Assembly (NCBI GenBank): GCA_963971425.1
Contig: OZ020521.1
Location: 7,271,519-7,335,518, forward strand
Direction: 5' to 3'
DNA length: 64,000 nucleotides
Origin: Bryoerythrophyllum caledonicum
Taxonomy: Eukaryota; Streptophyta; Bryopsida; Pottiales; Pottiaceae
How positions within the stretch are numbered: the first letter of the stretch is position 1; every line of letters begins with the position of its first letter. A model generated the notes under the pieces. It worked only from the letters and a program-made list of their open reading frames with translations. It made no database searches and was not told where the DNA came from. Shown one piece after another: positions 4,518-60,460 of this stretch. The position numbers and the translations under genes were made by a program.

Positions 4518-5901
4518 GTGCATTTACATGGTGCTTTCTCTTCTCTTATGTACCATAGGTGCTTCTATGCTACAATGGACCCTATTCTCGTTGGTGTTGT
4601 TCCAATTATGTGGATGGTCCTGTCAATGTTAGGAGGCAATTCGACGATGCCACTAACTAGTCCCATAGTACCGTTTCCTGTGTTGAGCACCCCAAGGTCA
4701 ACGACCTCATTGTCCATGGACACTACAAGTTTCGTACATTTTCTTCCCTTTTTATGCTTTATAGCTACAAAGAATGTTTATTCCCCACGGTTGTGGTGGG
4801 TGGTGCCGAGGCAAGAAACTCATTGGAGGTACGTTGAGCCACTAGTTTGGGCAGCAACTGAGGAGTCTTTTTATTGGAGACACATGGAAAACTATAGAAT
4901 GAGCCCTCAAGCGTTTGATGAATTGGTTGCCTTTCTAACACCTTATGTGCAATCAGAAATTATAAACCCGGTTAGGCCCCAATTGGAGATGAAGAAGATT
5001 GTTGCTCTAGTAGTATATAGGCTTGCTCATGGTATATCTCCAGACATCATGGCCGATCGCTTTCGGGTTGGAGGTTCCACCATTCGCAAGTATGTGCACA
5101 TAGTCTCTGACATCCTATGTGACTTGTTTAGTACATGCATTAGCATACCTTCAGGAGAACGATTGCAAGGCATCATAGATGACTTTGAGGTCCTCACTGG
5201 CTTGCCAAACATTTGCGGTGCTATTGATGGAACACACATTCCTCTCTCTACGCGACTAGATACAAGTGTCACTCCTTCCGAGGGTGACTTCTTCAACAAG
5301 AAGAAGTTTCATTCCATTGTTGCAAGTTGTTTGCGACTCGAACAAGGTTTTCTGGAATGTGTGTGTAGGTCAACCTGGTGATGTTCACGACAAGGGGCAA
5401 TTCAAAGTGTCAAGCTTATATAGTGGCCTTCGGAGTTGCGCTATTTTGCAGGCGCCAGTCGTGGATGTCCGAGGAAAGCTGTGCACTCCATACTTGATAG
5501 GTGATTCTGCCTATCCAATCCGTACTTATTTGCAAAGGAACTACAGGCCTACATGGGATGAAGAGAAGAAGAGGTTCAATAGTGCTATGAATTCCGGTAG
5601 GATTATTATAGAGAATGAATTTGGGTCTCTTAAGAATAGATGGCGTATTCTTAACAACTTTAACTCCAGAGTTGACAGAGCGGCTAGGATTACTGTAGCT
5701 TGTTGTTGGTTGCATAACTTTTGTGAGCAACGAAACTTACCAAAACGAGGAGGTCATAATGCACGGATTCTAGATACTGAGCGTGGATTTGGCAATATTA
5801 GACTACCGACTATTCGTGAGGTAGAGAGAGCAAAAGAAGATGGCAAAGCATTGAGAGAGAAGTTGTTTGAACAGTGGATTCTTCAAAACCCGCGGCCTTG
5901 A
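4518..5901 (+). pseudogene. PIF/Harbinger (HARBI1-like) DDE transposase, frameshifted
   Basis: Two overlapping frames encode the halves of one Harbinger transposase. The upstream frame (4518-5381) carries the helix-turn-helix-like segment with GGSTIRKYVHIV and the first catalytic aspartate in GAIDGTHIPL. The downstream frame (usable from about 5310 to 5901) carries the second aspartate in GQPGDVHDKGQF and the glutamate in IIENEFGSLKNRW, followed by the usual C-terminal helix. The switch of frame lies near 5310-5325, between the first and second catalytic residues, so the copy cannot make a complete enzyme as read. The companion Myb/SANT gene follows in the same orientation 0.5 kb downstream, as is normal in this superfamily. 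No terminal inverted repeats were identified. A sequencing indel is an alternative explanation for the shift. Confidence 0.88.
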
Positions 5902-6407
5902 AATCCATATCATCATAGTGACAAACTTCGGGTTTTTAAAATATTTTAATCCATTATCAATATTAACAAATAAATAAATGGATTTTTTAAAAGCAATGAC
6001 ATATCTTTAAAGCAATGGTATATTTTTAAAATAGAGTCGTGAACTTCCGTTACCTAGGTTACCTAGGTTTGTTTTTCTTTGCAACTTCACTTTGATGTTG
6101 TTTTGTTGCAAAAATATACATTACAGTAAAGTTCAATTGCTATGGTTAAAGTAATGATTGAAATCTTTGCTTTGACACTTCAATTTTAGGCTCTAGCTAT
6201 TTTTATCGTGCTCTTTTACTTTGCACCTTTACTTTAGTGCTTTTACTTTGATAAATATGTAGTAAAGTAAAAGAAATTGTTATTATATAGTATGTTGCGG
6301 TCTCTAACAATATACTATTGAATATATATGTCAGTGCTAAATATATTTTCCTTCTCTCTTCTCTCATTTGGATTGCGAGTTGTTAATTTTACAAAACAAC
6401 GTCCATC

Positions 6408-7443
6408 ATGGACGCAGGTGAGCCTTCAATTGTCCACCAAGAACAGACAGAGCCGAAAGAAAGGGATTGGACGAAGGAGAATTTTGGCTTCCTTCTGGCT
6501 CTTGTTAAAGAGAAGTTTATAGAAAATGGCGGTAAGAAGATCTCAAGGGATAATTGGATTAGTTTTGCCAAGACACTAAATGAATCATTTCCTAATGAGC
6601 CCGGACGATCATTTAAGCACTGCAGAGATAAGTTCCAAACTATGAAAACAAAGTACAAGGAAAAGAAGCATGACACGGAAGAGACAGGAGCTGCCCCATC
6701 AACGTGGCCATGGTATTCTTTCTTCGATGATTTGTTTAGGGGCACCGCAAATGTGGAAGGTAATTGATTTTTTTCACAATTTACTAATTAAGCACTCGTT
6801 TGAGATATTGTATTTGTACTAAATTTTGATTTTTAACAGAGTTTTCCATTCTTCTGTATGTTGTATAGGCGTACCGGGTGCTTGCGATCAAGGCGATATC
6901 AATAGGGAAGTTCATAACTTAAGCGATGAAGAGGTGGCTCCGAGTTCTGTGCAGCCATCCTCATCAATTCGAGCCCCTGGGGCTGGACCGTCCACTGCGC
7001 TTGTCTCTCCTCGTACAAGAGCAGAGAAACAACCACAAGCTCCTAGACAATTGAATCGGAGCGGCGAGAAACATAGAAGGCGGGGGCCTACCCCCGATCC
7101 ATCCATTGTGGCTGCCTTTGACAAATTATTGGAAGGTTTGTTACAATACCAAATAAATGCTTTAGAAGTATCGAAGAACCAAGTGGAACTTCAACGGAAC
7201 ACTTTGGAAAATGATGAGCGCTGGAGACAACATGAAGCGGCCACAAGAGAGATGAATATGCACCTACAAAGAGATATGCACCAAGAGCAATTGCGAGTGG
7301 CAAGGGAAATTCAAATGGACGTGCATCAACATCACTTCCAAATTGCTAACATGCTTGCAAATGCTTTGATGGCTATAGCTAATCGACCCCCTCTTCCCCA
7401 AGGACCACCCCCACCCCCACCGTTACACCCACCTCAACCTTGA
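6408..7443 (+). CDS. Harbinger-associated Myb/SANT-like (trihelix) protein
   Basis: The proposed gene has two exons, 6408-6759 and 6869-7443, joined across a GAAG|GTAATT donor and a TATAG|GC acceptor in matching phase. It encodes 308 residues. Residues about 18-110 form a Myb/SANT-like (trihelix) domain. They start at RDWTKENFGFLLALV and contain the spaced tryptophans of that fold (WT, NW, WPWYSFFDDLF). The second exon has a Ser/Pro/Ala-rich linker, a basic stretch (GEKHRRRGP), a glutamine- and arginine-rich predicted coiled coil and a proline-rich end. In PIF/Harbinger elements such a protein binds the transposase and helps bring it to the nucleus and to DNA. Unlike the adjoining transposase, this frame shows no break. 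A host trihelix factor is possible, but the location argues for the transposon. Confidence 0.8.
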
Positions 7444-8979
7444 GTAGTCATTTCAAGATACATTAGGTGGTCCCAATTTTTTAACGGAGTGTAAGGCTTT
7501 TTTTGAATGGATTGTAATACAATTTTTATAACGGAATGTAAGACATTTTTTGAGCGGATTGTGAAACATTTATTGTAAGGTGTATAATTGTACGTTTAAC
7601 TTCTACTTAATCTCTACGTTAAAGGGGTTAAATGACAAAAACTCATGTTAATCTTTGAACGTCAATGGGCGTTTGTGTTATCAATTTATGGCATAATTTG
7701 TTTTTAAAAATTATATATATATAATTGACTCTACACTATCCATCAGACACAAAAATTCGTTCATCAGATGTAGTCAATTTGACAAGGACACAAGTCATAT
7801 AACATGTTTGTATTTCATTTGGATCAATAATCCCCCCGGACATGTGTTATTGTCTATCCATCCATTTTTTTAATATGCAACATCAAGTTAACCCCTACAA
7901 GTCCATGCCATTTTAGAGGAATCTCTACTTGGTTGATTAGAATTTGAGAAGATGAACTAATTGAAAATGTAACCATAGGATCTTCTTCTGAACTTATAAG
8001 AAATGATGTGGTGAAAATTTTGTGAAGTTTGACCTTACAGACTGAAAGATAATTGCGGTCAAAGTATACATTTTAAGACCCCGTAAGTACACTTGAATCT
8101 GTTGGGGTTAATTAGCATGTTCATGTTCTTCAAAATGTCACCCTTCTTGGCCACATGAAAGATAAGTACCCTAAGCCCCTCTTTTCCACATGAAAAAAAG
8201 CACATAAACCTAGGTAATGAAAGGTCGTTGGGAACTTGGGTGAATTTCGTGAGGGATGGTAAAACGAAGGGCGGTTATGGGAAAATTTTGTGAAGATTTA
8301 CTGTCAAACGTACCAAAAACATCCCAAACTTACACGACGGTATGGTCAGCATGTCAGGGGGCGAATTTCAAGAAAGTGCTCCGAAAAGCAAGGGTCCGGT
8401 CCCTGAAAACTGCAATCTGGGTGCATGTGCGGGGACCAATTGACAGGCCCCTATTGAAAGTCTGTGAGCAAACAATCAGGATGAACTTGGGATATGGGCA
8501 GGTTTGGGAAGGAACGGGCGGGTTTGGAAACAAACGCACATGCAACCAGACGGAGCTCCCATCCAAACCCCAATGTCAAATGGTCAGCCCCACCTTACAT
8601 GAAATTTTGTTTTTTGACATTTTAAAGTTACACATTGGGAACACACACGAACGACCGCGCCCACTTGGGAACTCGCTTGGGAACAAACTTGGACAGATTG
8701 GGAACACATGAGAACGATGTGGGAACACACTCGGAACAGATAAGTTACAAATATGGTAAAAAAATGTAAAGCTGAGGAAGGGTTAACAAATGGATTGGTC
8801 AGCAACCAAACTAGTTTTCCACCTCAACCTGATATGGGTGTGAGACACCAAACCCGGCCCCGTAGGAGCCAGATTTGGTACCTCACACCACCGTACCGTG
8901 CTCATGTGCTCATGTGCGTATGCTTTGGGGAGCAGGGACGGAACGGGACGGGAGGTGGGCGGGCGGGGAAGGAAGAAGG
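7444..8979. other. Intergenic region with repeat fragments
   Basis: No gene is recognised. At about 8026-8050 there is a degenerate copy of the phrase AGTTTGACCGCACGGATTG that recurs in the family-B elements of this window, so 7960-8110 is probably an element fragment. Between 8633 and 8735 the motif TTGGGAAC(A) is repeated about six times at irregular spacing. The 151-codon frame at 8256-8711 runs through these repeats and resembles no known protein. Confidence 0.45.
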
Positions 8980-18539: not shown

Positions 18540-21500
18540 ACCCCATTAATAACACCATACATCATGAACATATACAACACATAGATACTAACAATATACA
18601 AAATACTTATACAAGAGATTTATGCCAATGGCAACACAAGAACAATACATTCAACAAATGGCTTCCTCAAAGAAACGTCTTTCCACGACACGAACGCAAT
18701 ACCTCCACATACAACACCAAAAATTTAAAACAATATTATCAAAGAATCCAAAATAAATTCTACTCGAAAATCATTCAAGCCCACCACCCTCAAGAACAAC
18801 TCCAAGACCGAAGATCCGTAATTCCACCTATAATTATTCCACTTCTAAACATCAATACAACACAATGTAACCCCAAAATTGATATACTCACATTCTCGAA
18901 CACAATTAAAATAGATAACAATCAAGCACACCTATATGAAGAAAATGGCCGGCATTTATCCACTATTACCACTACTAGACTCCAATGGCTATGGAATCAA
19001 TACAACATGAAACTACAAACTCCTACAAATATTGAACCAACAACCCAATCATTGAAACCGAATTAATTTGGCTATACCAGAGATATAAATACCGTATTCC
19101 AAAAAAAATCCCCTCAAAAGTGCACAATACTCAATACCCATACCCATTCTACACTCATTAATTTGATCCTATAACATTGAACAATCATACTTTTCTTCCC
19201 CCATCACATGCTCCACCAAACTAAAAAAAATTCTACTCACCCTTTGAAAGAGATAAAATATTTGGCTCCTTGGGAAAGGCCTTTGACTACAAATGGATTG
19301 GTAATGGTATAGCTCACCCCCAGAATGAGGAGGAAATACAACAAGCATTACATTGGGGCTGCCTTGCCGCCAAACATGACCCAAACCACACATCTACACT
19401 CATCATCACACCGGACAACAACTCGTACCAAAACTTTAACCAACACTCAAGCCCATTTATAGACTTTCATATCATTGCACTATTTGAAACAGACTCAATA
19501 CCATACGAAGAACCTATTATTCCACCCGAGCTAAAAAAGTCCCGGATTGAACCATCTACTTTACAAATAATATGTGTCCACCACCAAAATCAACCCCTTG
19601 GTACTCTAGAACAACTTGTTGAACTCACCTCCATAGCAAATACTCTAAATATACACCAACTATGCACTAAAATGGCCCCACCGACACCTATACCAACCCC
19701 CATAAACCGAAGCAAAAAATGGTCAAAACTAAACTACTTCAACAATACATTAGACTACCTTGTAACACCTCCCCCCCTCCCGAACTACCAAACTCATACC
19801 TCACCAAAATTTGACCCCGCATATAGCTACTATACCGATGGCTCCTTCAAACCACCAGAACAAGTTAGCCCGAGAAATTGGCGCAGAGAAAAATCTGGCT
19901 ATGGCATATATAATCCTACCGAAGAAATTAAATTAGCCAAAAGACTCCATGGACTACAAAATATCCTTAGAGCAGAACTTGTGGCCATCCACAAAACACT
20001 ACAAATTATCACAACAAAATACAACAGCGAACCTGCACACATATTCACCGATTGTATCAATGCACTTTACCTACTAAACACCCAAATAACACACCCTACC
20101 CTCCACAATAGCCACCCCGACAAAACCATATTAATGTCAATGGTCCAAATGTTACAAATCCGAACACAAATCACAACCCTTCACAAAGTTAGAGCACATG
20201 CCAATATTGATGGAAATGGACAAGCAGATAAATTAGCAAAAGAGGGCCGAGAAAAAACACATAAAAATGCCAAAGATCCATACAAACATGCCCATGCTAC
20301 CCCATACTACTTTCAAAAAGAAGATTGGCCTTCCAAAGAAGATACCCCTTATAAAGGCCCGGTTAGATTCTTGAGCAAATATCTCAAAAAACAAGACCTC
20401 TATAACAACCTTGACACAATCTCTCAAAACTTCCCTAACATAGAAAAATGGACTAGCAACAACAACATAGACAATGAACTCTCTACAAATTTTTGGAAAA
20501 ATCCCATTATTTCCGACTCACAAATAACATGTCTCATCAAATTCTGTACTGGTTAATATATGGAAAACTCCTGAAAACAACTCTTCTTTGGAATAGAAAG
20601 ATTTCCATCCATAACATGTCCCATATGCACTTCCACGGACCCCGACACATGGCTCCATGTTTTACTTAAATGCCAAAACCACCACATACACTCCTTAATT
20701 GTCAAAAGGCATAACAAAGCGGTATGGGAAATTCGAAAACTAATGACCTCCCATAACGAATCGAGATGTTTTATTCTCATGAATGCCGGCACCTTTAACA
20801 ACAACCCACAAGAAAATACGGTCCCCCCTAGGCTACTCCCATGTACATGTGCAACTCAACGTTGTCATTGCAATGCTAGACTCAAACCGGACATACTTTG
20901 TGTTAGAGGCCTACCATACAACGATCCCACACCCGACCACATAAACCAAAACTACACCATTCAATTCATCGAATTCACATATTATGATGATAGATTTTCC
21001 CCAGAAACAATCGAATTTTTTTTAAAAAAATACCAATCCTTTATCGATGACATCATAGCACTCGGATGGAAAGTGGACCCCCTTATTGTAATCATAGCCG
21101 GCGCTTGTGCCACCGCCTTTATCCCATCTATAAGAACCCTCGAAGATACCTTTAAAATCCCCATTGATACAATTGTACACACTTTCAAAAACATTAACAC
21201 CATTACCATCCAACATGCTATGTCCATCCTACTACATAAACGCAAAATTGAAAACAACCAAGCCCTCCCCCACACACAAGACCCTCCACAGTATTACCCA
21301 TTACTTATCTTTAAAACTTAAAAAAAAACAAAAAAAAACTCCTACATTGAGAAATACACCCCCCTCCCTCCTCCCAATGTTTCCCTCTTCCTCTCCTCGT
21401 CTTGTTCCCCTTTGGTTATGGTTGGTTACTTGTGTGTTTTGGCTACTTGTTACATAGTGTCTACCCTCGAGAGGGAGAAGCAGTTCCATACTACTAATTC

Positions 21501-32672: not shown

Positions 32673-35600
32673 TCAATCCATGGATTGTCTTTCTCCCATG
32701 GATTGTCTTTCTCCCATGAACTGTCGTTCTCCCATGGATTGTCTTTCTCCCATGAACTGTCTTTCTCCCGTGGATTGTCTTTCTCTCATGGATTGTCTTT
32801 CTCCCATGGATTGTCTTTCTCCCATGGATTGTCTTTCTCCCATGGATTGTTGTTCTCCCATGGACCGTCGTTCTCCCATGGATTGTCTTTCTCCCATGAA
32901 TTGTCTTTCTCCCGTGGATTGTCTTTCTCCCATGGATTGTCTTTCTCCCATGGATTGTCTTTCTCCCATGGATTGTCTTTCTTCCATGGATTGTCTTCCA
33001 TCCACTGATTGTCTTTCTCCAATTGAACGTCTCTCTCTCATGGATTGTCTTCCTCCAATAAATTCTTTTTCTCCTATGGATTGTCTTTCTCCCATAGATT
33101 GTCTTTCTCTCATAGGTTGTCTTTCTCCCATAGGTTGTCTTTCTCCCATAGACTGTCTTTCTCCCATAGACTGTCTTTCTCCCATAGATTGTCTATCTCC
33201 TATAGATTGTCTTTCTCCCATAGACTGTCTTTCTCCCATTGATTGTGTTTCTCCGATAGATTGTCTTTCCCCCGTTGACTGTCTTTCTCCCATGGATTGT
33301 CTTTCCCCCGTTGACTGTCTTTCTCCCATGGATTGTCTTTCACGAATTGCTTCTCTTTGACCCATTGACAATCTTTCTCCGATTGACTGTCTTTCTCCCA
33401 CGGATTGTCTTCCACCCATTGATTGTCTTTCTCCCACGGATTGTCTTCCACCCATTGATTGTCTTTCTCCCACGGATTGTCTTCCACCCATTGATTGTCT
33501 TTCTCCTCTAGATTGTCTTCTACCCACCGCTTCTTTTTCTCCCATTGACAATCTTTCTCCAATTGGCTGTCTTTCTCCCACGGATTGTCTTCCACCCATT
33601 GACTGTTGTTCTTCCATAGACTGCCTTTCTCCAATTGATTGTCTTTCTTCCATAGATTGTCTTCCACCCATTGATTGTCTATCTGCCATTGACTGTCTTT
33701 GTCCCATTGGTTTTCTTTCTCCCACGGATTGTCTTCCATCCATTGACTGTTGTTCTCCCATAGACTGCCTTTCTCCAGTTGATTGTCTTTCTCCCATGGA
33801 TTGTCTTCCACCCATTGACTGTCTTTCTCCCATGGACTGTCTTCCACCCATTGATTGTCTTTCTGCCATTGACTGTCTTTGTCCCATTGGTTTTCTTTCT
33901 CCCATAGATTGTCTTTCTCTCATGGATTGTCTTCCTTCCATAGATTGTCTTTCTGCCATTGGCTCTTTTTCTCCCATTGATTTTCTTTCTCCTATGGATT
34001 GTCCTCTGCCCAATGATTGTCTTTCTGCCATTGACTGTCTTTCTCCTATAGATTGTCGTCCATCCATTGATTGTCTTTCTTCCATTAATTTTTCATTGGC
34101 CATAAACTGTCTTTCATTCATAATTTGTTCTTTGCCCATAGGTCCTCTTTCTTCCATTATTTGTCTACCACCCATGGATTCCCTTATTCTTGTAGATTGT
34201 CTGCTACCTATAGATTTTCTAATGTCCATTGATTGTCTATTATCCATGTTTTGTGCTCCACGGAATGATTCTCTTATTCCCATGGATTGTCTTCCATCCA
34301 TTGATTTTTTTATTCCCATAGATTTCCTCCCACCCATGGATTCTATTATTCCTATAGATTGTCTTCCATCTGTGTATTCTCTTCCATCAATCCCTTGTCT
34401 ATTATTTGTAATCTCTCTTGTCCCCATAGATTCTCTACCATCTATTAATTCTCTACTATTAATTGATTGTCTTTCATCTGTATATTGTCTTCTACTTGTA
34501 GACTCTCGTATTCCCATTGATTGTCTTTCATTCATGATTTGTCCTCCACCCGTAGATTCTCTTGTTCCCATAGATTGTCTTCCATCTGTAGATTCTCTTT
34601 CAACAATTTCTTGTCTACTACTTGTAGATTTTCTTATTCCCATAGATTGTCTGCCACCCATTGATTTTCTACTATTAAATAATTTTCTTTCATCCATATA
34701 TTGTCCTCTACTTGTAGATTCCCTAATTCCCATGGACTCTCTTCCATAGGTGGATTCTATTTTTCCTATAGATTGTCGTCCACCCAAGGATTCTTGTTCA
34801 TCAATTTCTTCTTTACTACCTATGGATTCTCTTATTCCCGTTGATTTCCTTCCACCCATAGATTCTCTTATTCCCATAGCATTCCTTCCACCTATAGATT
34901 CTCTTATTCCCATTGATTGTCTTCCATCCGAATATCCTATTTCATCAAATCCTTGTCTGCTACTTGTGCATTCTCTTATTTCCATAGATTTCCTTCCACC
35001 CATGGGTTCTCTTATTTCCATTGATTTTCTTCCACGAGTGGATTCTCTTTCATCAGCTCCTTGTCTACTACTTGTGGATTCCCGTAATCCCATAGATTTC
35101 CTTCCACCCATGTATTCTCTTATTCCAATTGATTGTCTTCCGTCCGTATATTCACTTTCATCAATCCCTTCTCTACTAATTGTAGATTCTCTTATTCCCA
35201 TTGATTGTCTTCCACCTATGAATTCTCTTTCATCAAATTTTTGTCTACTACTTGTAGATTCTCTTATTCCCATAGTTTGTCTGCTATCCATTGATTCTTT
35301 GCTATCAATGGATTGTCTTTGATCTATATGTTGTCTTCCACCCATGGATTCTCTTATCCCCAATGATTGTCTTCCATCTATTGGGTTTCTTATTTCCATA
35401 AATTCTTCCCATAAAGGTTTTCTTCCATCCATGGATTCTATTATTCCTATTGATTGTCTTCCATCTATGTATTCTCTTTCATCGATCCCCTTTTTACTAC
35501 TTGTGGATTCTCTTATTTCTATAGATTGCCTTCCACCCATTGATTCTCTAGTATTGATTGATTGTCTTCCATCTGTATATTGTCCTCTACTTGTAGATTC

Positions 35601-38600
35601 TCTTATTCCCGTTGATTGTCTTCCACCCATGGATTGCCTTTCATCGATCCCTTGTCTACTACTTGTAGATTCTCTTATTCCCGTTGATTGTCTTCCACCC
35701 ATGGATTGCCTTTCATCGATCCCTTGTCTACTACTTGTAGATTCTCTTATTCCCGTTGATTGTCTTCCACCCATGGATTGCCTTTCATCGATCCCTTGTC
35801 TACTACTTGTAGATTCTCTTATTCCCGTTAATTGTCTTCCACCCATGGATTGCCTTTCATCAATCCCTTGTCTATTACTTGTAGATTCTCTTATTCCCAT
35901 AGACTTCCTTCCACCCATGGATTCTCTTATTCCCATTGATTGACTTCCACCCATGGATTGCCTTTCATCAATTCCTTGTTTACTACTTGTGGATTCTCTT
36001 ATTTCCATAGAATTTCTTCCACCCATAGATTCTCTTATTCCCATAGAATTTCTTCCATCCATAGGTTCTCTTATTCCCATAGAATTTCTTCCACCCATAG
36101 ATTGTCTTATTTCCATTGATTGTCTTCCACTCGTGAATTCTCTTTCATCAATTCCTTGTCTACTATTTGTAGATTCTCTTATCCCCATAGATTGTCTACC
36201 ACCCATTGATTTTCTACTATTGATTGATTGTTCTTCATTCATATATTGTCCTTTATTTATAGATTCTCTTATTTCCATGGATTCTCTTTCATCCATTGCT
36301 TCCCCTATTTCTGATGATGGTTTTCCACCCATTGATTTCCTTATTCCTATAGATTGTTTTCCTCTAATGGGTTCTCTTCCACTCATCAAGTCTCTTACAT
36401 CATTGTCATAGTAGTTTTCTTCTTTCAAATCAACATGTTCAACAACATTTTCTTCTAAGTTATATTTTTGTGTACTTGGAGAATGAAATCGTGAAATAAC
36501 AAGTGATTTTGGGCGTGGCTTATGTGAATTAGAATATAGCGAAGTTCTAGACAAGTTTGATGTTGATTGAGACCTTTGTTGTAAATTTTTAAAACTATCC
36601 CCAAGTTTATCCACAGAATAGCGTCTTGGTTCATGATTCCTTTCAATATGATGTGAAATAGATGGAACTACATCTTGAATATTTTTTAGTTTAGAAGATA
36701 ATTCTTTCCGAACTTCTTCAATAGATGCTCTTCTAGATGCATCCATTACACTACAATCAATTGATTCATTTTCTACTACATTTATATTACTTTGATTTTG
36801 AAACATAGAATTTGATGCAAAGTCCTTATTATCATCATTATTTATTATAGATAAGTGTGTGGATGGGGGTTCATTCTTACTATCATCATTCATCTTAAAT
36901 AAAACATTCAACTCATCAAGTTCACTTCTTTCATTTGGAGGAATTGATATTGTCTCAGAAGCTTGTTTTAGTTCACTATTTTGAGTTTGGTTTTGAGTTT
37001 CAAGTTGTTCTTTTGTTGATGGATTACTTTGTGAACTTTGAAATAAGGACATGAATTTTTCGGTAAAGGAAAATGGTTTGCTTACTTTTGGAGAAGTTAT
37101 TTTGTTACTTGGGTGAGCATAGGATAAGGATTTAGTTAGTTTCAAAGACTTTGATCCTTTACTTAAATGAGAATAAGATACTGATTTATTGAGTTTTGAA
37201 GACTTTGGTGCATTCAATGGTTCAATTTGAGATTTCATTTCCTCATCCTTTTCATTTTCATAATTGGTTGATTCCTCATTGTTTTTGCTCAAAATTATTT
37301 TTTCATTTTCACTTGTAGTTGCATATGATTCATTAATTGGTGAATCTTGAAATAATGACCAAGATTTGGATAGTTTGGAAGATTCACTTTTTCTTGCATT
37401 TTTTGACATGGGCTTCTTTGATCCATGACTTGTTGACTTGGACCTAAATTTCACCTTTTTATTGTTTTCTACTTGTTCTTCAATATTCCAATACGTTTGA
37501 TCTTTTTCATTCATATTAAAAGATTCATTTGTATTATCATATGGAGGTTCATTCGTTTTAAAATATTCATTATGTGCTTCAACTACATTTTGTGACATTT
37601 GTACTTCATTGTCAAGTGGATTATCATGTAAAGATAATCGTAAGGATTTATCAGAATTAGAAACATATGATGGTTTATATCTAATATGCATCTGATGTTC
37701 ATTATCATTTGTTGAATTGTCATCTTTTATGTTCATCTTAAAAAGTGTATGTTCATCATGTGGAATCTTTTCATGTTTGGATATATAAGAAGGTCTAAAT
37801 TTAGAATTTGGTTGATTCAATGTAGCTTGTGATCCATCACTTGTTGAATTTTCACCCCAAGCTATATGGTGTACAGGATGGTGTTCATCTCCTGAGTGAT
37901 GTAAAATAGAATGAATAGAAAATTCATTTGTTTCTAAAATATTTTGAGATTCATTTTCATTCTGATTTATAGGCGGATCATATAATGCCGTTACTTGATC
38001 CACTAATGAATTCAAAGGCCATGGTAGTTGACTCGTTGTATTTTCGTGGGGAGCTATTTGATTTTCTATTGATTGGAATTTTCTGTTATCTTGACTTTTG
38101 TCAAAATTATGTATTTTTGATTTAGAATCATAGTTTATAAGAACATCATCGTTATAGGCCATTTTGGAGGGTACTGATTGTCTACTGCTAGAATTGACAT
38201 TTTTATTGTTATAGGGTTTATTTGATATATGATAACTTTTGCTTCTAGATTTGTTTAAAATTCTGTAATCTAATTCATCATCATCTTCATGTGCATTTTC
38301 TTCAAATTTTGATTGTGTATAAGAATGTTTAGGAGTTTTATAATACACTTTTCCTTTTCTCTCTTCATTAGCAATGGTGTGATGAAAATTCACTTTTGAG
38401 TTATCATGTTTTTTAATCCTTAAAATATTGTTTTGGAATTCCGCATTTGAGAAATCTTTCCAATTTAAAATTTCTTCATCTTTTAAATCATTATTATAAG
38501 TACAATTTTTTTCACTTTGTTCTTCTATAATTTGTTTTTCTATATTCATCATTTCATTTATATCAACTTCTATAACTATTGTTTTTTCTACATGAACCCT

Positions 38601-41411
38601 TTTAGGCGAAATATTTAGAACAGAAAAACTTTTATTACCATTTTCACAATTTAATCTTGTCTCTTGTTCTTCATAACTATTTGGTAAATCTTCATTATAT
38701 TGATGAGGTAAATTATAAGAAAAATCATCTACTGGATTTAAATGCCTATGCAAAAGATTGGTATTTGCATCACCTAATACATCAGAAGATTCAATATGTG
38801 AAGAATATGAAATATTTTTCTCATTGAAATCAATAAATACAGGTTCATTAGGATAATCAAAATGTTCCTCATGAGGTGGAATTTGATCCCAATTATCATG
38901 GTGTTGTACACTTTGTTCATAATTAATTGGACATTCATCACTAATAGATTGACCATTATATACATGATTTGTAGACATTCTATTCATTGGTAGTGGTTCA
39001 TAATAAACATCATTATTCTTTGTTTCCAATTGTGCACTACAAGTAACATTATTTGTGGATATTATGTTCATTGGTAGTTCACCATATGTATCATTGCTTG
39101 TAGATATTCTATTTATTGGTAGTTCATAATGTGTAACATTGCTTGTGGATATTCTGTTTATTGGTAGTTCACCATATGTAACATTGCTTGTAGATATTCT
39201 ATTTATCGGTAGTTCACAATGTGTAAGATTATTTGTGGATGTTCTACTCATTGGTAGTTCACCATATGTAACATTGCTTGTAGATATTCTATTTATTGGT
39301 AGTTCACCATATGTAATATTACTTGTGGAAATTCTATTCACCGGTAGTTCACAATGTGAAACATTATTTGTGGATAATCTACTCATTGGTAGTTCACCAC
39401 ATGTGACATTGCTTGTAGATATTCTGTTTATTGGTAGTTCACCATATGTAATATTACTTGTGGAAATTCTATTCACCGGTAGTTCACAATGTGAAACATT
39501 ATTTGTGGATAATCTACTCATTGGTAGTTCACCACATGTGACATTGCTTGTAGATATTCTGTTTATTGGTAGTTCACCATATGTAATATTACTTGTGGAA
39601 ATTCTATTCATTGGTAGTTCACAATGTGTAACATTATTTGTGGATGTTCTGCTCATTGGTAGTTCGCCACATGTGACATTGCTTGTAGATATTTTGTTTG
39701 TTGGTAGTTCATCATTTGTAACATTACTTGTGGAAATTCTATTCACCGGTAGTTCACAATATGTAACATTATTTGTGGATAATCTATTCATTGTTTGTGG
39801 TTCATAATAAACATCTTTTTTAGTTCCTAAAGGTTCACAATATGTAACATGATTTTCCATTTCTAATGATTCCTTAGGTCCCAAATGTGTTTCTATACTC
39901 AATTGTTTATCACACAAAACAGTTGTTTCCAATTCTGATGGTTTATCATACAACATAATTGTTTCGATTTCTAATGGTTTATCGTATGACACATTTGATT
40001 CTATTGGATTGTTGTATGATATTTTTGTTTCAACATGTTGTGCTTGGACGTATTCAACATTTGGATTAAAACTATGTCTACTACATACATGATTATTATC
40101 AACATAATTATTTGAGAAATGATAACCATGTTCTTTGATCATGTGTTCCTCGGGATTGTATTTCAATTCATTTATTTCTGCTGTCATTCTTTGAATGTCT
40201 CGAGTTTTCCGATCAAGTTCGTCCTTCATATCCACAACATTTTTAAAGTAAAAATGAAATTTGATTGTTTTAGTACAAACAATCACTCATAGCATGTATA
40301 GTTGCATTAACTACTTAATGATTTACTAGTTTTCTTTTTTGAACCAATAATCAATATTATAAATAAAAGATAACTTTGTTAAGATTTTATTATATATATA
40401 TATACACATTTTGCATACCTGGTGTTTATTGTTTGTATTCAACAATAGCTCCAACATTTGAAATGCTACTTTTCCACAACTAAAAATTCTTTGTAGCAAT
40501 AGTGATATCAACACCCTTTCATCCAATGTTTTGTCAAAATATGAACATTGTAGCTGTACAATTGCAATAGACACAAAATTTAAAAACATCAAAGACCATA
40601 TATTTATTTAATCTTGAAATGAGCTCTTTTTTATATGATTGTTGTTTGATAAAAGTTTAATAAGTTAATATATTTTGTAAAGATAAGGATAAGAAACTAC
40701 ATAACTGCTTACTATTTGAAAATGTATGTAATCTTTTCTTTGTACAGACCTTATTACATACCAATAGAACTCAATGTATTTGCATAATATGATTTTATAA
40801 TATTTCACTAGTAAAATTGCTCAAAACAAAAAAAATTAGGATGAAAATTTTCTACAAGAAAGGATGACATACATGGAATACTTGCCATTTTGGAGTCGGC
40901 ATCAATGGTGGTAAAAGAGTAGCTGCTTTCATGATGTTGCTCTTGTAAATGAGTATGCACTTGATCCAACCACTCTTCTACCTCGAGGTTCCATTTACTT
41001 GCTTCATGAGCCACAAATTCTTGTGTAGCTGTTTTGAAACGTTATTAGTTTACAACCTCTATGTATTCAATCCAATATTTTAAAACACAATTAAAGATTA
41101 TAGAAGGTTTTGTTAAATCTTTGCTCAAATCTAACAAATATAAAATTGTTAAGATCATATATATATAAATATATATGGTGTTTTAGGATAGTTTTTATAA
41201 GATATATATATTTTACAATACCATTGATGTCCCAGGTATCTTGGCCATCCATTACTGCCAACAAGAAATGAGTTGGATACCAAATTCCCTTCACAAAAAG
41301 AATTTGGCCATCCTTTAATTCTAACTTTGCATAAGTTTCGTTTTCTTTGTACAACCTTGCAAATTCTTTTTCCCTTTCAAATTTTTGTTGCTTCAAAATA
41401 TCTTCTTCCAT
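32673..41411 (-). CDS. XRCC4-like head domain fused to a giant repetitive tail (about 2,672 aa)
   Basis: Four minus-strand exons are proposed: 41411-41222, 41028-40886, 40553-40419 and 40223-32673. All are phase-consistent. Intron 1 is GT-AG, intron 2 appears to be GC-AG (ATG|GCAAGT) and intron 3 is GT-AG with a weak pyrimidine tract. Exons 1-3 resemble the head and first coiled-coil turns of plant XRCC4, the DNA ligase IV partner in non-homologous end joining. Signs are KLELKDGQILFVKGIWYPTH, the DGQ turn, TQEFVAHEASKW, ESSYSF...DSKM, then MLELLLNTNN and DELDRKTRDIQRMTAEINEL. Usual XRCC4 proteins have about 260-340 residues. Here exon 4 adds about 2,516: a short helix, 16 tandem 15-residue units, a 900-residue Ser/Asn/Lys-rich stretch, and about 1,240 residues of R-Q-S-M-G-E-type hexamers up to the stop. 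The coiled-coil part that normally binds ligase IV is not recognisable. The XRCC4 assignment rests on memory of the plant family. The tail frame itself is beyond doubt. Confidence 0.7.
32676..36395 (-). repeat. 18-bp coding repeat (hexapeptide), with 72-bp higher-order units
   Basis: The 3' half of the giant exon encodes about 205 degenerate hexamers around R-Q-S-M-G-(E/G/D). Toward the C-terminus (32.68-33.9 kb) the simple ERQSMG form dominates. Between about 34.3 and 36.3 kb a 24-residue higher-order unit appears (GIRESTSSRQGIDERQSMGG plus four residues). Four nearly identical 72-bp copies of it lie head to tail at about 35590-35880. The antisense strand is open over long stretches because of the periodicity. 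Confidence 0.93.
39026..39796 (-). repeat. 45-bp coding tandem repeat (15-residue unit, about 16 copies)
   Basis: The encoded unit is close to NRISTSNVTYGELPI. A higher-order period of three units (135 bp) is visible because HCELPV, YGELPI and CGELPM versions follow each other in order several times. The units are exact multiples of three, so the frame of the giant exon is kept. Two 135-bp blocks around 39330-39600 are nearly identical, which points to recent unequal exchange. Confidence 0.92.
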
Positions 41412-46839: not shown

Positions 46840-46925
46840 GAAGGATGTGATGATGAGAAATTGTCGCCCCAGTCCTATACGAACTTTGTTCTATGAGGAT
46901 TGACTATACTCTATTCTGATTCTTC
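46840..46925 (+). ncRNA. Candidate C/D-box snoRNA (unit A1)
   Basis: A C box GTGATGA (46847-46853) and a D box CTGA (46916-46919) are spaced as in C/D snoRNAs. They are bracketed by a terminal stem GAAGGA (46840-46845) with TTCTTC (46920-46925), six pairs with one G-U. The guide next to the D box would be GACTATACTCTATT. A duplicate of its 5' half occurs at 47055. Targets were not verified. Confidence 0.5.
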
Positions 46926-46939
46926 CGTTATTACTCGTC

Positions 46940-47032
46940 GGGATGTGATGATTTTTTTCGCCTCACCCGAATGTAGCTTCATGTTACATCATGTGGGATT
47001 GCGAAACATGATTTGCACGTCAGTCTGATCCC
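46940..47032 (+). ncRNA. Candidate C/D-box snoRNA (unit B1)
   Basis: C box GTGATGA (46945-46951), D box CTGA (47025-47028) and terminal stem GGGA (46940-46943) with TCCC (47029-47032). The guide before the D box reads GATTTGCACGTCAGT. Its last 45 bp are repeated near 47280-47324 (GTTGCGGAACATGATTTGAA, then CAGTCTGA), so the unit is duplicated. A target in 25S rRNA is plausible but unchecked. Confidence 0.5.
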
Positions 47033-47054
47033 TGTGTACTTTTTCGGTGAAAGT

Positions 47055-58638: not shown

Positions 58639-60460
58639 ATGGCGGGCATCAAGCGCCTGAGCAGCACTTATGGTGCCTCGTTTCTGGCCTTGATAACGCT
58701 CTGTTACTTCACGCAGGGATTGCGGTGCTTTCCCTGGATGGCCATGACTTATTGGTACAAGGACAATCTGAAGGTGAGCGCAAGAAAGACGAAGTCGGTA
58801 GAGATTAAATTCGAATGGTAGCGAGTAGTATTGACGTGCTCTGCTGTCAGTAGTTTAGGTTTGAGGCAGAGCTGCGGATTCATTGTTTTCGTTTTGATGG
58901 CCCTTCTGTTTGCTGTGCAGGTCGATCCAGGCACAATGCAATTCCTCATGTCCACGGCTGCGCTTCCCATGGTCGCCAAGCCAGTGTATGGTATCATTTC
59001 AGACTCTGTGTACATCAAGGGCGCGCATCGTGTGCCCTACATCATCATCGCAGGTGAGACACTCTGCAATTTTGTTACAAGTGTAAATGTCATTATCATT
59101 GCTGAATTCTGACGATGTAAATTCATCACTTGCGTCATCTGGTTTCAGGAGCGCTCCAACTCTTCGCTTGGGCTTCAATAGCAATGTTCGCTGGAGTATC
59201 GTCGACCGCTACCATCCTGACGGCGTTCCTCACAATCACCAACTTCGGTGGCGCCATAGCGGAGGTCGTCCAAGACGCCATGATTGCTGAAGCCGGGAAA
59301 CACAAAGTGGGTGCACAGCAAGGTAAGCACCTCTAGACTCTCCTCACACCAAGAGAACCAATGTATGGAGATCAGTTCATTCGTTTGGTAAATGAATCAC
59401 ATGGCTTCATCTCCTCACTGTACGTCTAATTGTTCCTTTCTCTTCACGTCTCCATGCACGTGAAGCGCTTCATCTCCTTACACCATGATTTTGTCGACGT
59501 GTGTTCGTTGCAGGTGAGCTCCAGACCTTTGCCTGGCTCGCCATGGCGGGCGGAGGCGTGGTCGGCAACTTATCAGCCGGCTACGCCATGAAGCTTCTGA
59601 GCCCCAAAGCCATGGTGCTCGTGTTCGTCTTCCTCCTCTCGCTGCAACTCCTGCTGGCTTTCACAGTGAACGAGCGCGCCCTCGGCCTCGGCCCCGCCAA
59701 GCTCGACACCGACGACAACCCGGACGCGAAGCAAGCGAAGAAAGGCGTCGTGGCCGCGATGTGGGACCAGATCGCGACCCTGAGGCTCTCTCTGCAGAAG
59801 CCAGCGCTCTGGCGCCCGCTCCTGTGGTTCCTCTCCTCCTACTTCGTGATCCCGGGCATCGGCGGCGCCATCTTCTTCTTCCAGACGGAGCACCTGGGGC
59901 TGCACGTCTCCGTGCTGGGCCTGGCGCGCCTCGTCGGCCAAGTGGGGCTGCTCCTCGGCAGCATGCTCTTCAACAAAGCCCTCAAGGGCCTCCCCCTGCG
60001 CCAAATGTTCGCCGGGGTCCAGATCCTCCTCTCCCTCTGCATGCTCACCGACATCATCATCGTGAAGCGGATCAACTTGGAGTACGGCATCCCGGACAAG
60101 TGGTTCGTGCTGGGCGCTTCGGCGTTCGTGGAGGCCATCGGCCAGTTCAAGATCCTCCCGTTTACGGTGCTCCTGGCGCAGCTGTGTCCTCCGGGAAGCG
60201 AGGGCTCGGTGTTCGCGTTCTTCGCATCGGCGCAGACCATCGCCGGCTTGACAAACGGCTACCTTGGCGTGGCGCTCGCGAATTACCTCAAGATCACGGC
60301 CAAGGACTTCTCCGGCCTGCCGCTGGGCATCCTCATCCAGTCGTTCTGCGCCATGCTGCCAGTGCTGTGGATCGGCCTGATTCCGGCCCAGCCGGAGCGG
60401 AACGTCTCCGAGATTCAGATGAAGGCCGTCGATGACGAGGACACCAAGAAAGAGCTCTAA
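58639..60460 (+). CDS. BT1-family folate/biopterin transporter
   Basis: There are four exons, 58639-58773, 58921-59053, 59149-59322 and 59514-60460, with canonical GT-AG introns and matching phases. They give 462 residues, normal for the family. The N-terminal part holds GIKRLSSTYGASFL, YFTQGLRCFPWMAMTYWYKD, PVYGIISDSVYIKGAHRVPY and FGGAIAEVVQDAMIAEAGK, which are hallmarks of plant folate-biopterin transporters of the major-facilitator type. About twelve hydrophobic helices follow with a charged central loop (KQAKKGVVAAMWDQ) and a short acidic/basic C-terminus. Characterised members carry folates or pterins across plasma or plastid membranes. The substrate of this one cannot be told from sequence. 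There is no obvious transit peptide. The ATG at 58639 starts the conserved region, and a GC-rich leader precedes it. Confidence 0.9.

What the first reader, a model, noticed from the sequence alone, without database searches (positions are those of the whole stretch)
32673..41411. XRCC4-like DNA-repair head domain spliced to a 2,500-residue repeat tail
Three small exons encoding an XRCC4-type head are phase-compatible with a 7.55-kb intronless exon that is almost wholly repetitive. XRCC4 normally has about 260-340 residues; here the predicted product is about 2,672. A stop-free frame of 2,516 codons in AT-rich DNA cannot be chance, and all repeat units are multiples of three. A filament-forming end-joining factor with a huge Arg/Ser/Gln-rich disordered tail would be new to me. 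It could act as a scaffold, a phase-separating linker or a lineage-specific regulator.
Basis: partly seen in the sequence, partly recalled or inferred. Interest (0 to 1): 0.92.

Follow-up and report, generated by a model that had tools for sequence, protein, structure and literature searches.

The report
Moss XRCC4-like protein with repeat tail
A moss-like plant genome carries a real gene that joins a DNA-repair-type head to a very long, probably floppy, repeat-rich tail; it looks like an offshoot of the XRCC4 repair protein that has lost part of the stalk and may serve as a scaffold, with a relative in the model moss Physcomitrium.

Summary
A four-exon gene model on the minus strand (41411-32673) encodes 2,672 residues: an XRCC4-type head (PF06632, 49.1 bits, cut-off 26.2), a short stalk and a 2,516-codon last exon. 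The model needs a GC-AG second intron, which a paralogue shares in its DNA and Physcomitrium patens by inference from protein models. P. patens has a 1,100-residue relative with head, stalk and long tail in one predicted protein; the host genome has a second copy (1,428 residues) with identical exon 2 and 3 lengths. The tail is homologous to the P. patens tail (30.8% over 344 columns, E 3e-19). About 59% of the last exon is tandem repeat; a 1,236-residue RQSMGE-type array lies beyond the point where the P. patens protein ends and shows signs of coding constraint. 'End-joining factor' is weakly supported: the same genome has an ordinary XRCC4 with a lower-stalk motif that the three long-tail proteins lack. 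Shared intron positions suggest descent from an XRCC4-type gene that kept only head and upper stalk. Most likely it is a dimeric, disordered, phosphorylation-prone scaffold rather than the ligase IV partner. New variant of a known kind; function untested.

The parts
41222..41411 (-). Exon 1 (190 nt): start codon and first part of the XRCC4-type head
   Evidence: the start region aligns with P0006 and the C14 paralogue
41029..41221 (-). Intron 1 (193 nt), GT-AG
40886..41028 (-). Exon 2 (143 nt): rest of the head up to ...DSKM
   Evidence: same length in the C14 paralogue
40554..40885 (-). Intron 2 (332 nt), GC-AG (ATG|GCAAGT)
   Evidence: same donor in the C14 paralogue; protein models P0003 and P0004 read on as KMAS where P0006 has KMLECS
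40419..40553 (-). Exon 3 (135 nt, phase 0/0): end of the head and start of the stalk
   Evidence: also 135 nt with phase 0/0 in the C14 paralogue and in the ordinary XRCC4 model on C6
40224..40418 (-). Intron 3 (195 nt), GT-AG
32673..40223 (-). Exon 4 (7,551 nt, 2,516 codons and stop): end of the stalk and the whole tail
40152..40223 (-). Stalk part of exon 4 (DELDRKTRDIQRMTAEINELKYNP)
   Evidence: Conserved in C14 and P0006
39072..39788 (-). 15-residue repeat array (ELPxNRISTSNVTYG type; 45 nt, higher-order 135 nt)
36522..38660 (-). Mostly non-repetitive tail with motifs shared with P. patens: YYKTPKHSY, SRSKSY, WGEN, two LFQ-type motifs, S(L/M)SYAH, ASIEEVR, RRYS(V/I)DK
32676..36383 (-). Six-residue repeat array, 1,236 residues (RQSMGE/RESMGG/RQGIDE types; 18/36/72 nt)

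Best explanation
This is a member of an XRCC4-derived family found so far in this moss-like genome and in Physcomitrium patens. A duplicated XRCC4-type gene kept the head and the upper stalk (two shared intron positions flank a 135-nt exon), lost the lower stalk that in XRCC4 holds ligase IV (that role is recalled, not tested), and gained a giant last exon encoding a disordered tail. The protein probably forms parallel dimers through head and short stalk, so that two long tails radiate from one node; conserved basic-residue-plus-serine motifs in the tail are probably docking and phosphorylation sites, and the repeat arrays act as an extendable polyampholyte spacer or condensing segment. It would work as a scaffold, probably nuclear, and not as the ligase IV partner. 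Shown by sequence: open frame and splice-compatible gene plan, head family, tail homology, absence of the motif, signs of coding constraint. Inferred: transcript, dimerisation, disorder, phosphorylation, location and scaffold role.
For: Head: PF06632 at 49.1 bits, cut-off 26.2; a four-head profile matches human XRCC4 chains at 4.4e-8 (1fu1_A, residues 29-159) and XRCC4-myosin chimeras at up to 1.3e-9. Joining: P0006, one predicted 1,100-residue P. patens protein, has head, stalk and tail; the C14 paralogue has the same E2 143, E3 135 and GC-AG intron 2. Tail homology: window against P0006 82 bits over 344 columns, best of 20 shuffles 25.4 bits. Ordinary XRCC4 elsewhere: C6 model, 337 residues, aligned to human XRCC4 as far as residue 242 of 7lsy_F and carrying VLNTKKSKSR where human has VLNEKKTKIR; the motif is in 1 of 7 proteins tested and in none of the three long-tail ones. 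Constraint: array dN/dS-like 0.46 at lag 6 against 0.78-1.7 in 200 simple neutral simulations; head and stalk dN 0.34, dS 1.25 between paralogues over 195 codons, NG86. Among other head paralogues two are linked to DUF3444 and two to an AT-hook-like motif (label recalled), one of them to both, which hints at nuclear roles.
Against: No expression, localisation or binding data; P0006 is itself a database prediction (isoform X2). The charge-hydropathy measure puts the tail on the disordered side but also the window head, marginally, so it does not discriminate. C14 and P0006 tails gave no BLASTP match at E 0.1 beyond head and stalk. The head tree has no branch reaching both support thresholds. 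One antisense frame of the array also has a low ratio (0.65 and 0.55). The motif pattern was written after C6 had been seen, so its presence there is no independent test.
Confidence: 0.55

Rival explanations
1. It is still an end-joining factor: the head binds XLF or XRCC4 and joins or regulates repair filaments, the tail acting as a recruiting platform.
For: Head homologous to XRCC4; a paper names a second XRCC4-like gene in Physcomitrella (PMC8803787, passages seen), which may or may not be P0006.
Against: VLNxKKxKxR motif of the lower stalk absent while an ordinary XRCC4 exists in the same genome. In PMC8803787 the second XRCC4-like gene was not detected as differentially expressed, whereas Pp3c1_38430, which the authors call XRCC4, was; PMC4990234 lists it as 149-fold up after bleomycin (passages seen). 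Whether Pp3c1_38430 corresponds to C6 was not tested.
Confidence: 0.2
2. The head and conserved tail motifs function, but the 1,236-residue RQSMGE-type array is a tolerated minisatellite with no role of its own, grown beyond the ancestral C-terminus.
For: The P. patens protein ends some 40 residues after its YSN motif and the C14 paralogue has a different low-complexity end; near-identical 72-nt copies (95% match) point to recent expansion.
Against: No stop in 1,236 codons, one register shift among 149 matched units, and dN/dS-like ratios of 0.46, 0.51 and 0.62 at lags 6, 12 and 24. This could reflect only avoidance of stops and of harmful residues.
Confidence: 0.35
3. It is a basal-body or flagellar scaffold of swimming sperm, working like SAS6 or CCDC61, which share the XRCC4 fold.
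For: CCDC61 and SAS6 are XRCC4-superfamily scaffolds (PMC7267773, passages seen); mosses have flagellate sperm (recalled); a weak CEP63 match for the C14 head, 18.9 bits, under its cut-off of 33.
Against: The window head matched XRCC4 and, of other families, only a weak ORC5_C at E 0.1 or better.
Confidence: 0.08
4. Head and tail are separate genes, or the gene is dead.
For: No transcript was available; two database models stop in intron 2 (P0003, P0004) and one in intron 1 (P0005).
Against: The stalk runs unbroken across the exon 3/4 junction in three proteins; P0006 is one predicted protein; constraint in head and array.
Confidence: 0.04

Closest known systems
P0006, uncharacterized protein of Physcomitrium patens (1,100 aa, PF06632)
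   Same: 54% identity over 99% of the head-stalk query; KMLECS joint that fits the same GC-AG intron; homologous tail motifs
   Different: About 935 residues after the inferred intron position; no counterpart of the 15-residue or RQSMGE-type arrays in the alignment; ends about where the array begins
XRCC4 (human; ordinary XRCC4 model on C6 of the same genome)
   Same: Head family, start of the stalk, and with C6 a 135-nt exon with phase 0 on both sides
   Different: The window protein lacks the lower-stalk VLNxKKxKxR and is about eight times longer than C6
XRCC4-head proteins linked to DUF3444 or AT-hook-like motifs in the same genome (C4, C12, C14:17.76 Mb)
   Same: Head; for C14:17.76 Mb also similar first exon borders, read by eye
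   Different: DUF3444 or DNA-binding-type stretches in place of the repeat tail
SAS6 / CCDC61 (XRCC4 superfamily)
   Same: Plan of head, coiled coil and low-complexity tail (PMC7267773, passages seen)
   Different: No match to a SAS6-type family was listed for the window head

Membership tests
XRCC4 superfamily, PF06632 head | Head domain above the curated cut-off | tested here: met
   49.1 bits against 26.2
XRCC4 superfamily, PF06632 head | Head followed by a parallel coiled-coil stalk | tested here: inconclusive
   The profile alignment runs on to about residue 160 of human XRCC4 chains such as 1ik9_A, into the upper stalk (its place is recalled); no coiled-coil or structure prediction could be run
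XRCC4 proper (ligase IV partner) | Lower stalk with VLNxKKxKxR | tested here: not met
   Present in 1 of 7 proteins tested, C6 only; human has VLNEKKTKIR
XRCC4 proper (ligase IV partner) | XRCC4_CC coiled-coil model (PF21924) | tested here: not met
   Not listed for the window head and stalk at E 0.1 or better; C6 matches at 21.8 bits, itself below the cut-off of 27
   2,672 residues; the C6 model has 337
XRCC4 proper (ligase IV partner) | Binds ligase IV and XLF and is needed for end joining | not testable with these tools
   Needs bench work
XLF and other XRCC4-superfamily branches | Match to their own Pfam models | tested here: not met
   Only XRCC4 and a weak ORC5_C were listed at E 0.1 or better for the window head
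Long-tail XRCC4-like family (proposed here) | Exon 2 of 143 nt, exon 3 of 135 nt, GC-AG intron 2, giant last exon | tested here: met
   Window and C14 at DNA level; P. patens at protein level only
Intrinsically disordered scaffold | Disordered tail | tested here: inconclusive
   Composition on the disordered side, but so, marginally, are the window head and the C6 head

The most novel reading that the evidence does not exclude
Mosses turned a duplicated XRCC4 into a new kind of nuclear scaffold: a dimeric head that no longer holds ligase IV, bearing two tails of over a thousand residues whose arginine-serine repeats are multi-site kinase targets, so that phosphorylation tunes condensation around the head's partner; array length is a fast-evolving dial.
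Probability: 0.25. Interest if true: 0.7.

Novelty: new variant of a known kind. Interest (0 to 1): 0.52.

Why it matters
XRCC4-superfamily proteins are described as scaffolds in end joining or centriole formation (PMC7267773, passages seen). Here a member of the XRCC4 branch seems to have shed its ligase-holding part and taken on a long fast-evolving tail, in a plant lineage noted for efficient gene targeting (PMC8803787, passages). P. patens allows a direct test by gene removal. The GC-AG intron may also explain why some gene models of this family are cut short.

Tried and rejected
Rejected: chance open frame; head and tail as separate genes; membership in XRCC4 proper. Alternatives to the GC donor (GT donors downstream) were weighed by eye and set aside because the GC donor recurs in the paralogue and fits P0006; no script scored them. 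Led nowhere: a DNA match to the array on C11 lies in no open frame of 150 codons or more, and part of that fetched stretch reads N; it was left. No other copy of the mid-tail stretch was found in the genome with a 660-residue query. A search among proteins near full length (about 1,240-3,940 residues) found none at E 1 or better among 136 candidates. Single-sequence searches of solved structures were weak: none for P0006 at E 10; for the C14 head XRCC4 chains at 4.6e-4 (a chimera at 5.4e-5), but unrelated designed proteins scored as well as that. The YN00 method failed and NG86 alone is given. The species could not be named: 13 contigs over 20 Mb among the 21 of 894 whose lengths were read; 'moss' rests on the nearest named relative. 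Literature: 10 of 10 searches used, three of them with lists cut short (20 of 41, 10 of 24, 15 of 70); in what was listed I saw no paper on this protein, unless the second XRCC4-like gene of PMC8803787 is it. The library is open-licence only. PMC8803787, PMC4990234 and PMC7267773 were seen as passages; the other papers only as search listings.

Full report
What is there. The minus strand holds a four-exon gene model: E1 41411-41222, E2 41028-40886, E3 40553-40419, E4 40223-32673, giving 2,672 residues. Introns 1 and 3 are GT-AG; intron 2 is GC-AG (ATG|GCAAGT...CAG). The open last exon is far beyond chance: 20 simulated 64-kb windows gave at most 246 open codons against 2,516; the longest real open frame elsewhere in the window is 443 codons.

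The head. The first 200 residues match PF06632 at 49.1 bits (cut-off 26.2) and otherwise only a weak ORC5_C at E 0.1 or better. A profile of four heads matches human XRCC4 chains at 4.4e-8 (1fu1_A, residues 29-159) and XRCC4-myosin chimeras at up to 1.3e-9. Single-sequence evidence is weaker: P0006 found no solved structure at E 10, and with the C14 head XRCC4 chains reached 4.6e-4 and a chimera 5.4e-5, while unrelated designed proteins reached 5.6e-5.

The joining of head and tail. A search for proteins of about 400-1,260 residues found one at E 1 or better among 244 candidates: P0006, an uncharacterized P. patens protein of 1,100 residues, 54% identical over 99% of the query region, with its own long tail. 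A search near the window protein's length found none among 136 candidates; a search with four short heads found four of 1,507. P0003 agrees with P0006 up to ...DVKM and then reads ASPPF, and P0004 (P. patens) reads KMASFSS, as expected if a predictor runs through a GC donor; P0005 instead runs into intron 1. The own genome holds a second long-tail gene on C14 with E1 205, E2 143, E3 135 and E4 3,804 nt, the same GC-AG intron 2, 1,428 residues.

The tail. Window and P0006 tails align at 30.8% over 344 columns (82 bits; best of 20 shuffles 25.4) and share KTPKHSY, SRSKSY, WGEN, ASIEEVR, RRYS(V/I)DK and two LFQ-type motifs. Window and C14 tails align at the start and near the RRYS region (34% over 107 columns, E 0.002, 31 bits against 24.3 for the best of 20 shuffles), and weakly, out of order, in their repeats; C14 and P0006 gave no BLASTP match at E 0.1 beyond the stalk. 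P0006 ends some 40 residues after its YSN motif, about where the window's six-residue array begins, so the array is an addition relative to P. patens. It has 1,236 residues, self-match 0.44 at lag 6 against 0.02-0.06 at lags off the period, one register shift among 149 matched units, and a dN/dS-like ratio of 0.46 at lag 6, outside the 0.78-1.7 range of 200 simple neutral simulations; one antisense frame reached 0.65 and 0.55. The 15-residue array also gives 0.46.

Origin. The genome has six loci with an XRCC4-like head in these searches: C9 (window), C14:14.4 Mb, C12, C4, C6 and C14:17.76 Mb, the last found only at E 0.29 but with DUF3444 downstream. C6 gives an ordinary XRCC4 model of 337 residues, aligned to human XRCC4 through residue 242 of 7lsy_F, with VLNTKKSKSR where human has VLNEKKTKIR. 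That this part of the stalk holds ligase IV in human XRCC4 is recalled. Its second exon is 135 nt with phase 0 on both sides, as is exon 3 of both long-tail genes. The long-tail genes thus seem to share the introns around this exon with XRCC4 and to diverge beyond the second: the stalk goes on for some 24 residues and then gives way to the tail. The motif is absent from the window, C14 and P0006 proteins, and also from C4, C12 and the fragment P0002. In the head tree the two long-tail genes, P0006 and P0004 group at 88/92; no branch is starred and the order within the group is open. dN 0.34 and dS 1.25 between the paralogues over 195 codons speak for purifying selection, with dS high enough to be unsure.

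Reading. The protein is XRCC4-derived but fails tests for XRCC4 proper. The likeliest role is a dimeric scaffold with a disordered, phosphorylation-prone tail; that is inference from the superfamily (PMC7267773, passages seen) and from composition. PMC8803787 (passages) names a second XRCC4-like Physcomitrella gene that was not detected as differentially expressed; whether it is P0006 could not be checked.

Limits. The charge-hydropathy measure does not separate head from tail clearly.

Noticed in passing
L018 (G000:C4:30685000-30694999): A 684-residue open frame joins an XRCC4 head (56.5 bits) to DUF3444 (179.9 bits); a literature search for both terms found 0 papers.
   Followed up: partly
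L017 (G000:C14:17754000-17763999), about 5800-8750: Another possible XRCC4-head gene (head found only at E 0.29) with an AT-hook-like GRGRPPK stretch and DUF3444 (96.4 bits) in following open frames; the joining was read by eye.
   Followed up: partly
L019 (G000:C12:9312000-9321999): Intronless XRCC4-head open frame with an AT-hook-like RGRPPGK stretch and a weak XLF match (15.4 bits, cut-off 24.6).
   Followed up: partly
window 46843-47035 +: Two C/D-box snoRNAs of Rfam families snoU31b and snoZ122 side by side.
   Followed up: no
window 5260-5898 + and 19225-20556 +: Probable transposon remains: a DDE_Tnp_4 transposase frame and an RNase H frame.
   Followed up: no
window 59489-60460 +: BT1-family transporter frame, 250.7 bits.
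   Followed up: no
G000:C11:3274119-3274254: DNA match (74%) to the array outside any open frame of 150 codons or more; part of the fetched neighbourhood reads N.
   Followed up: no
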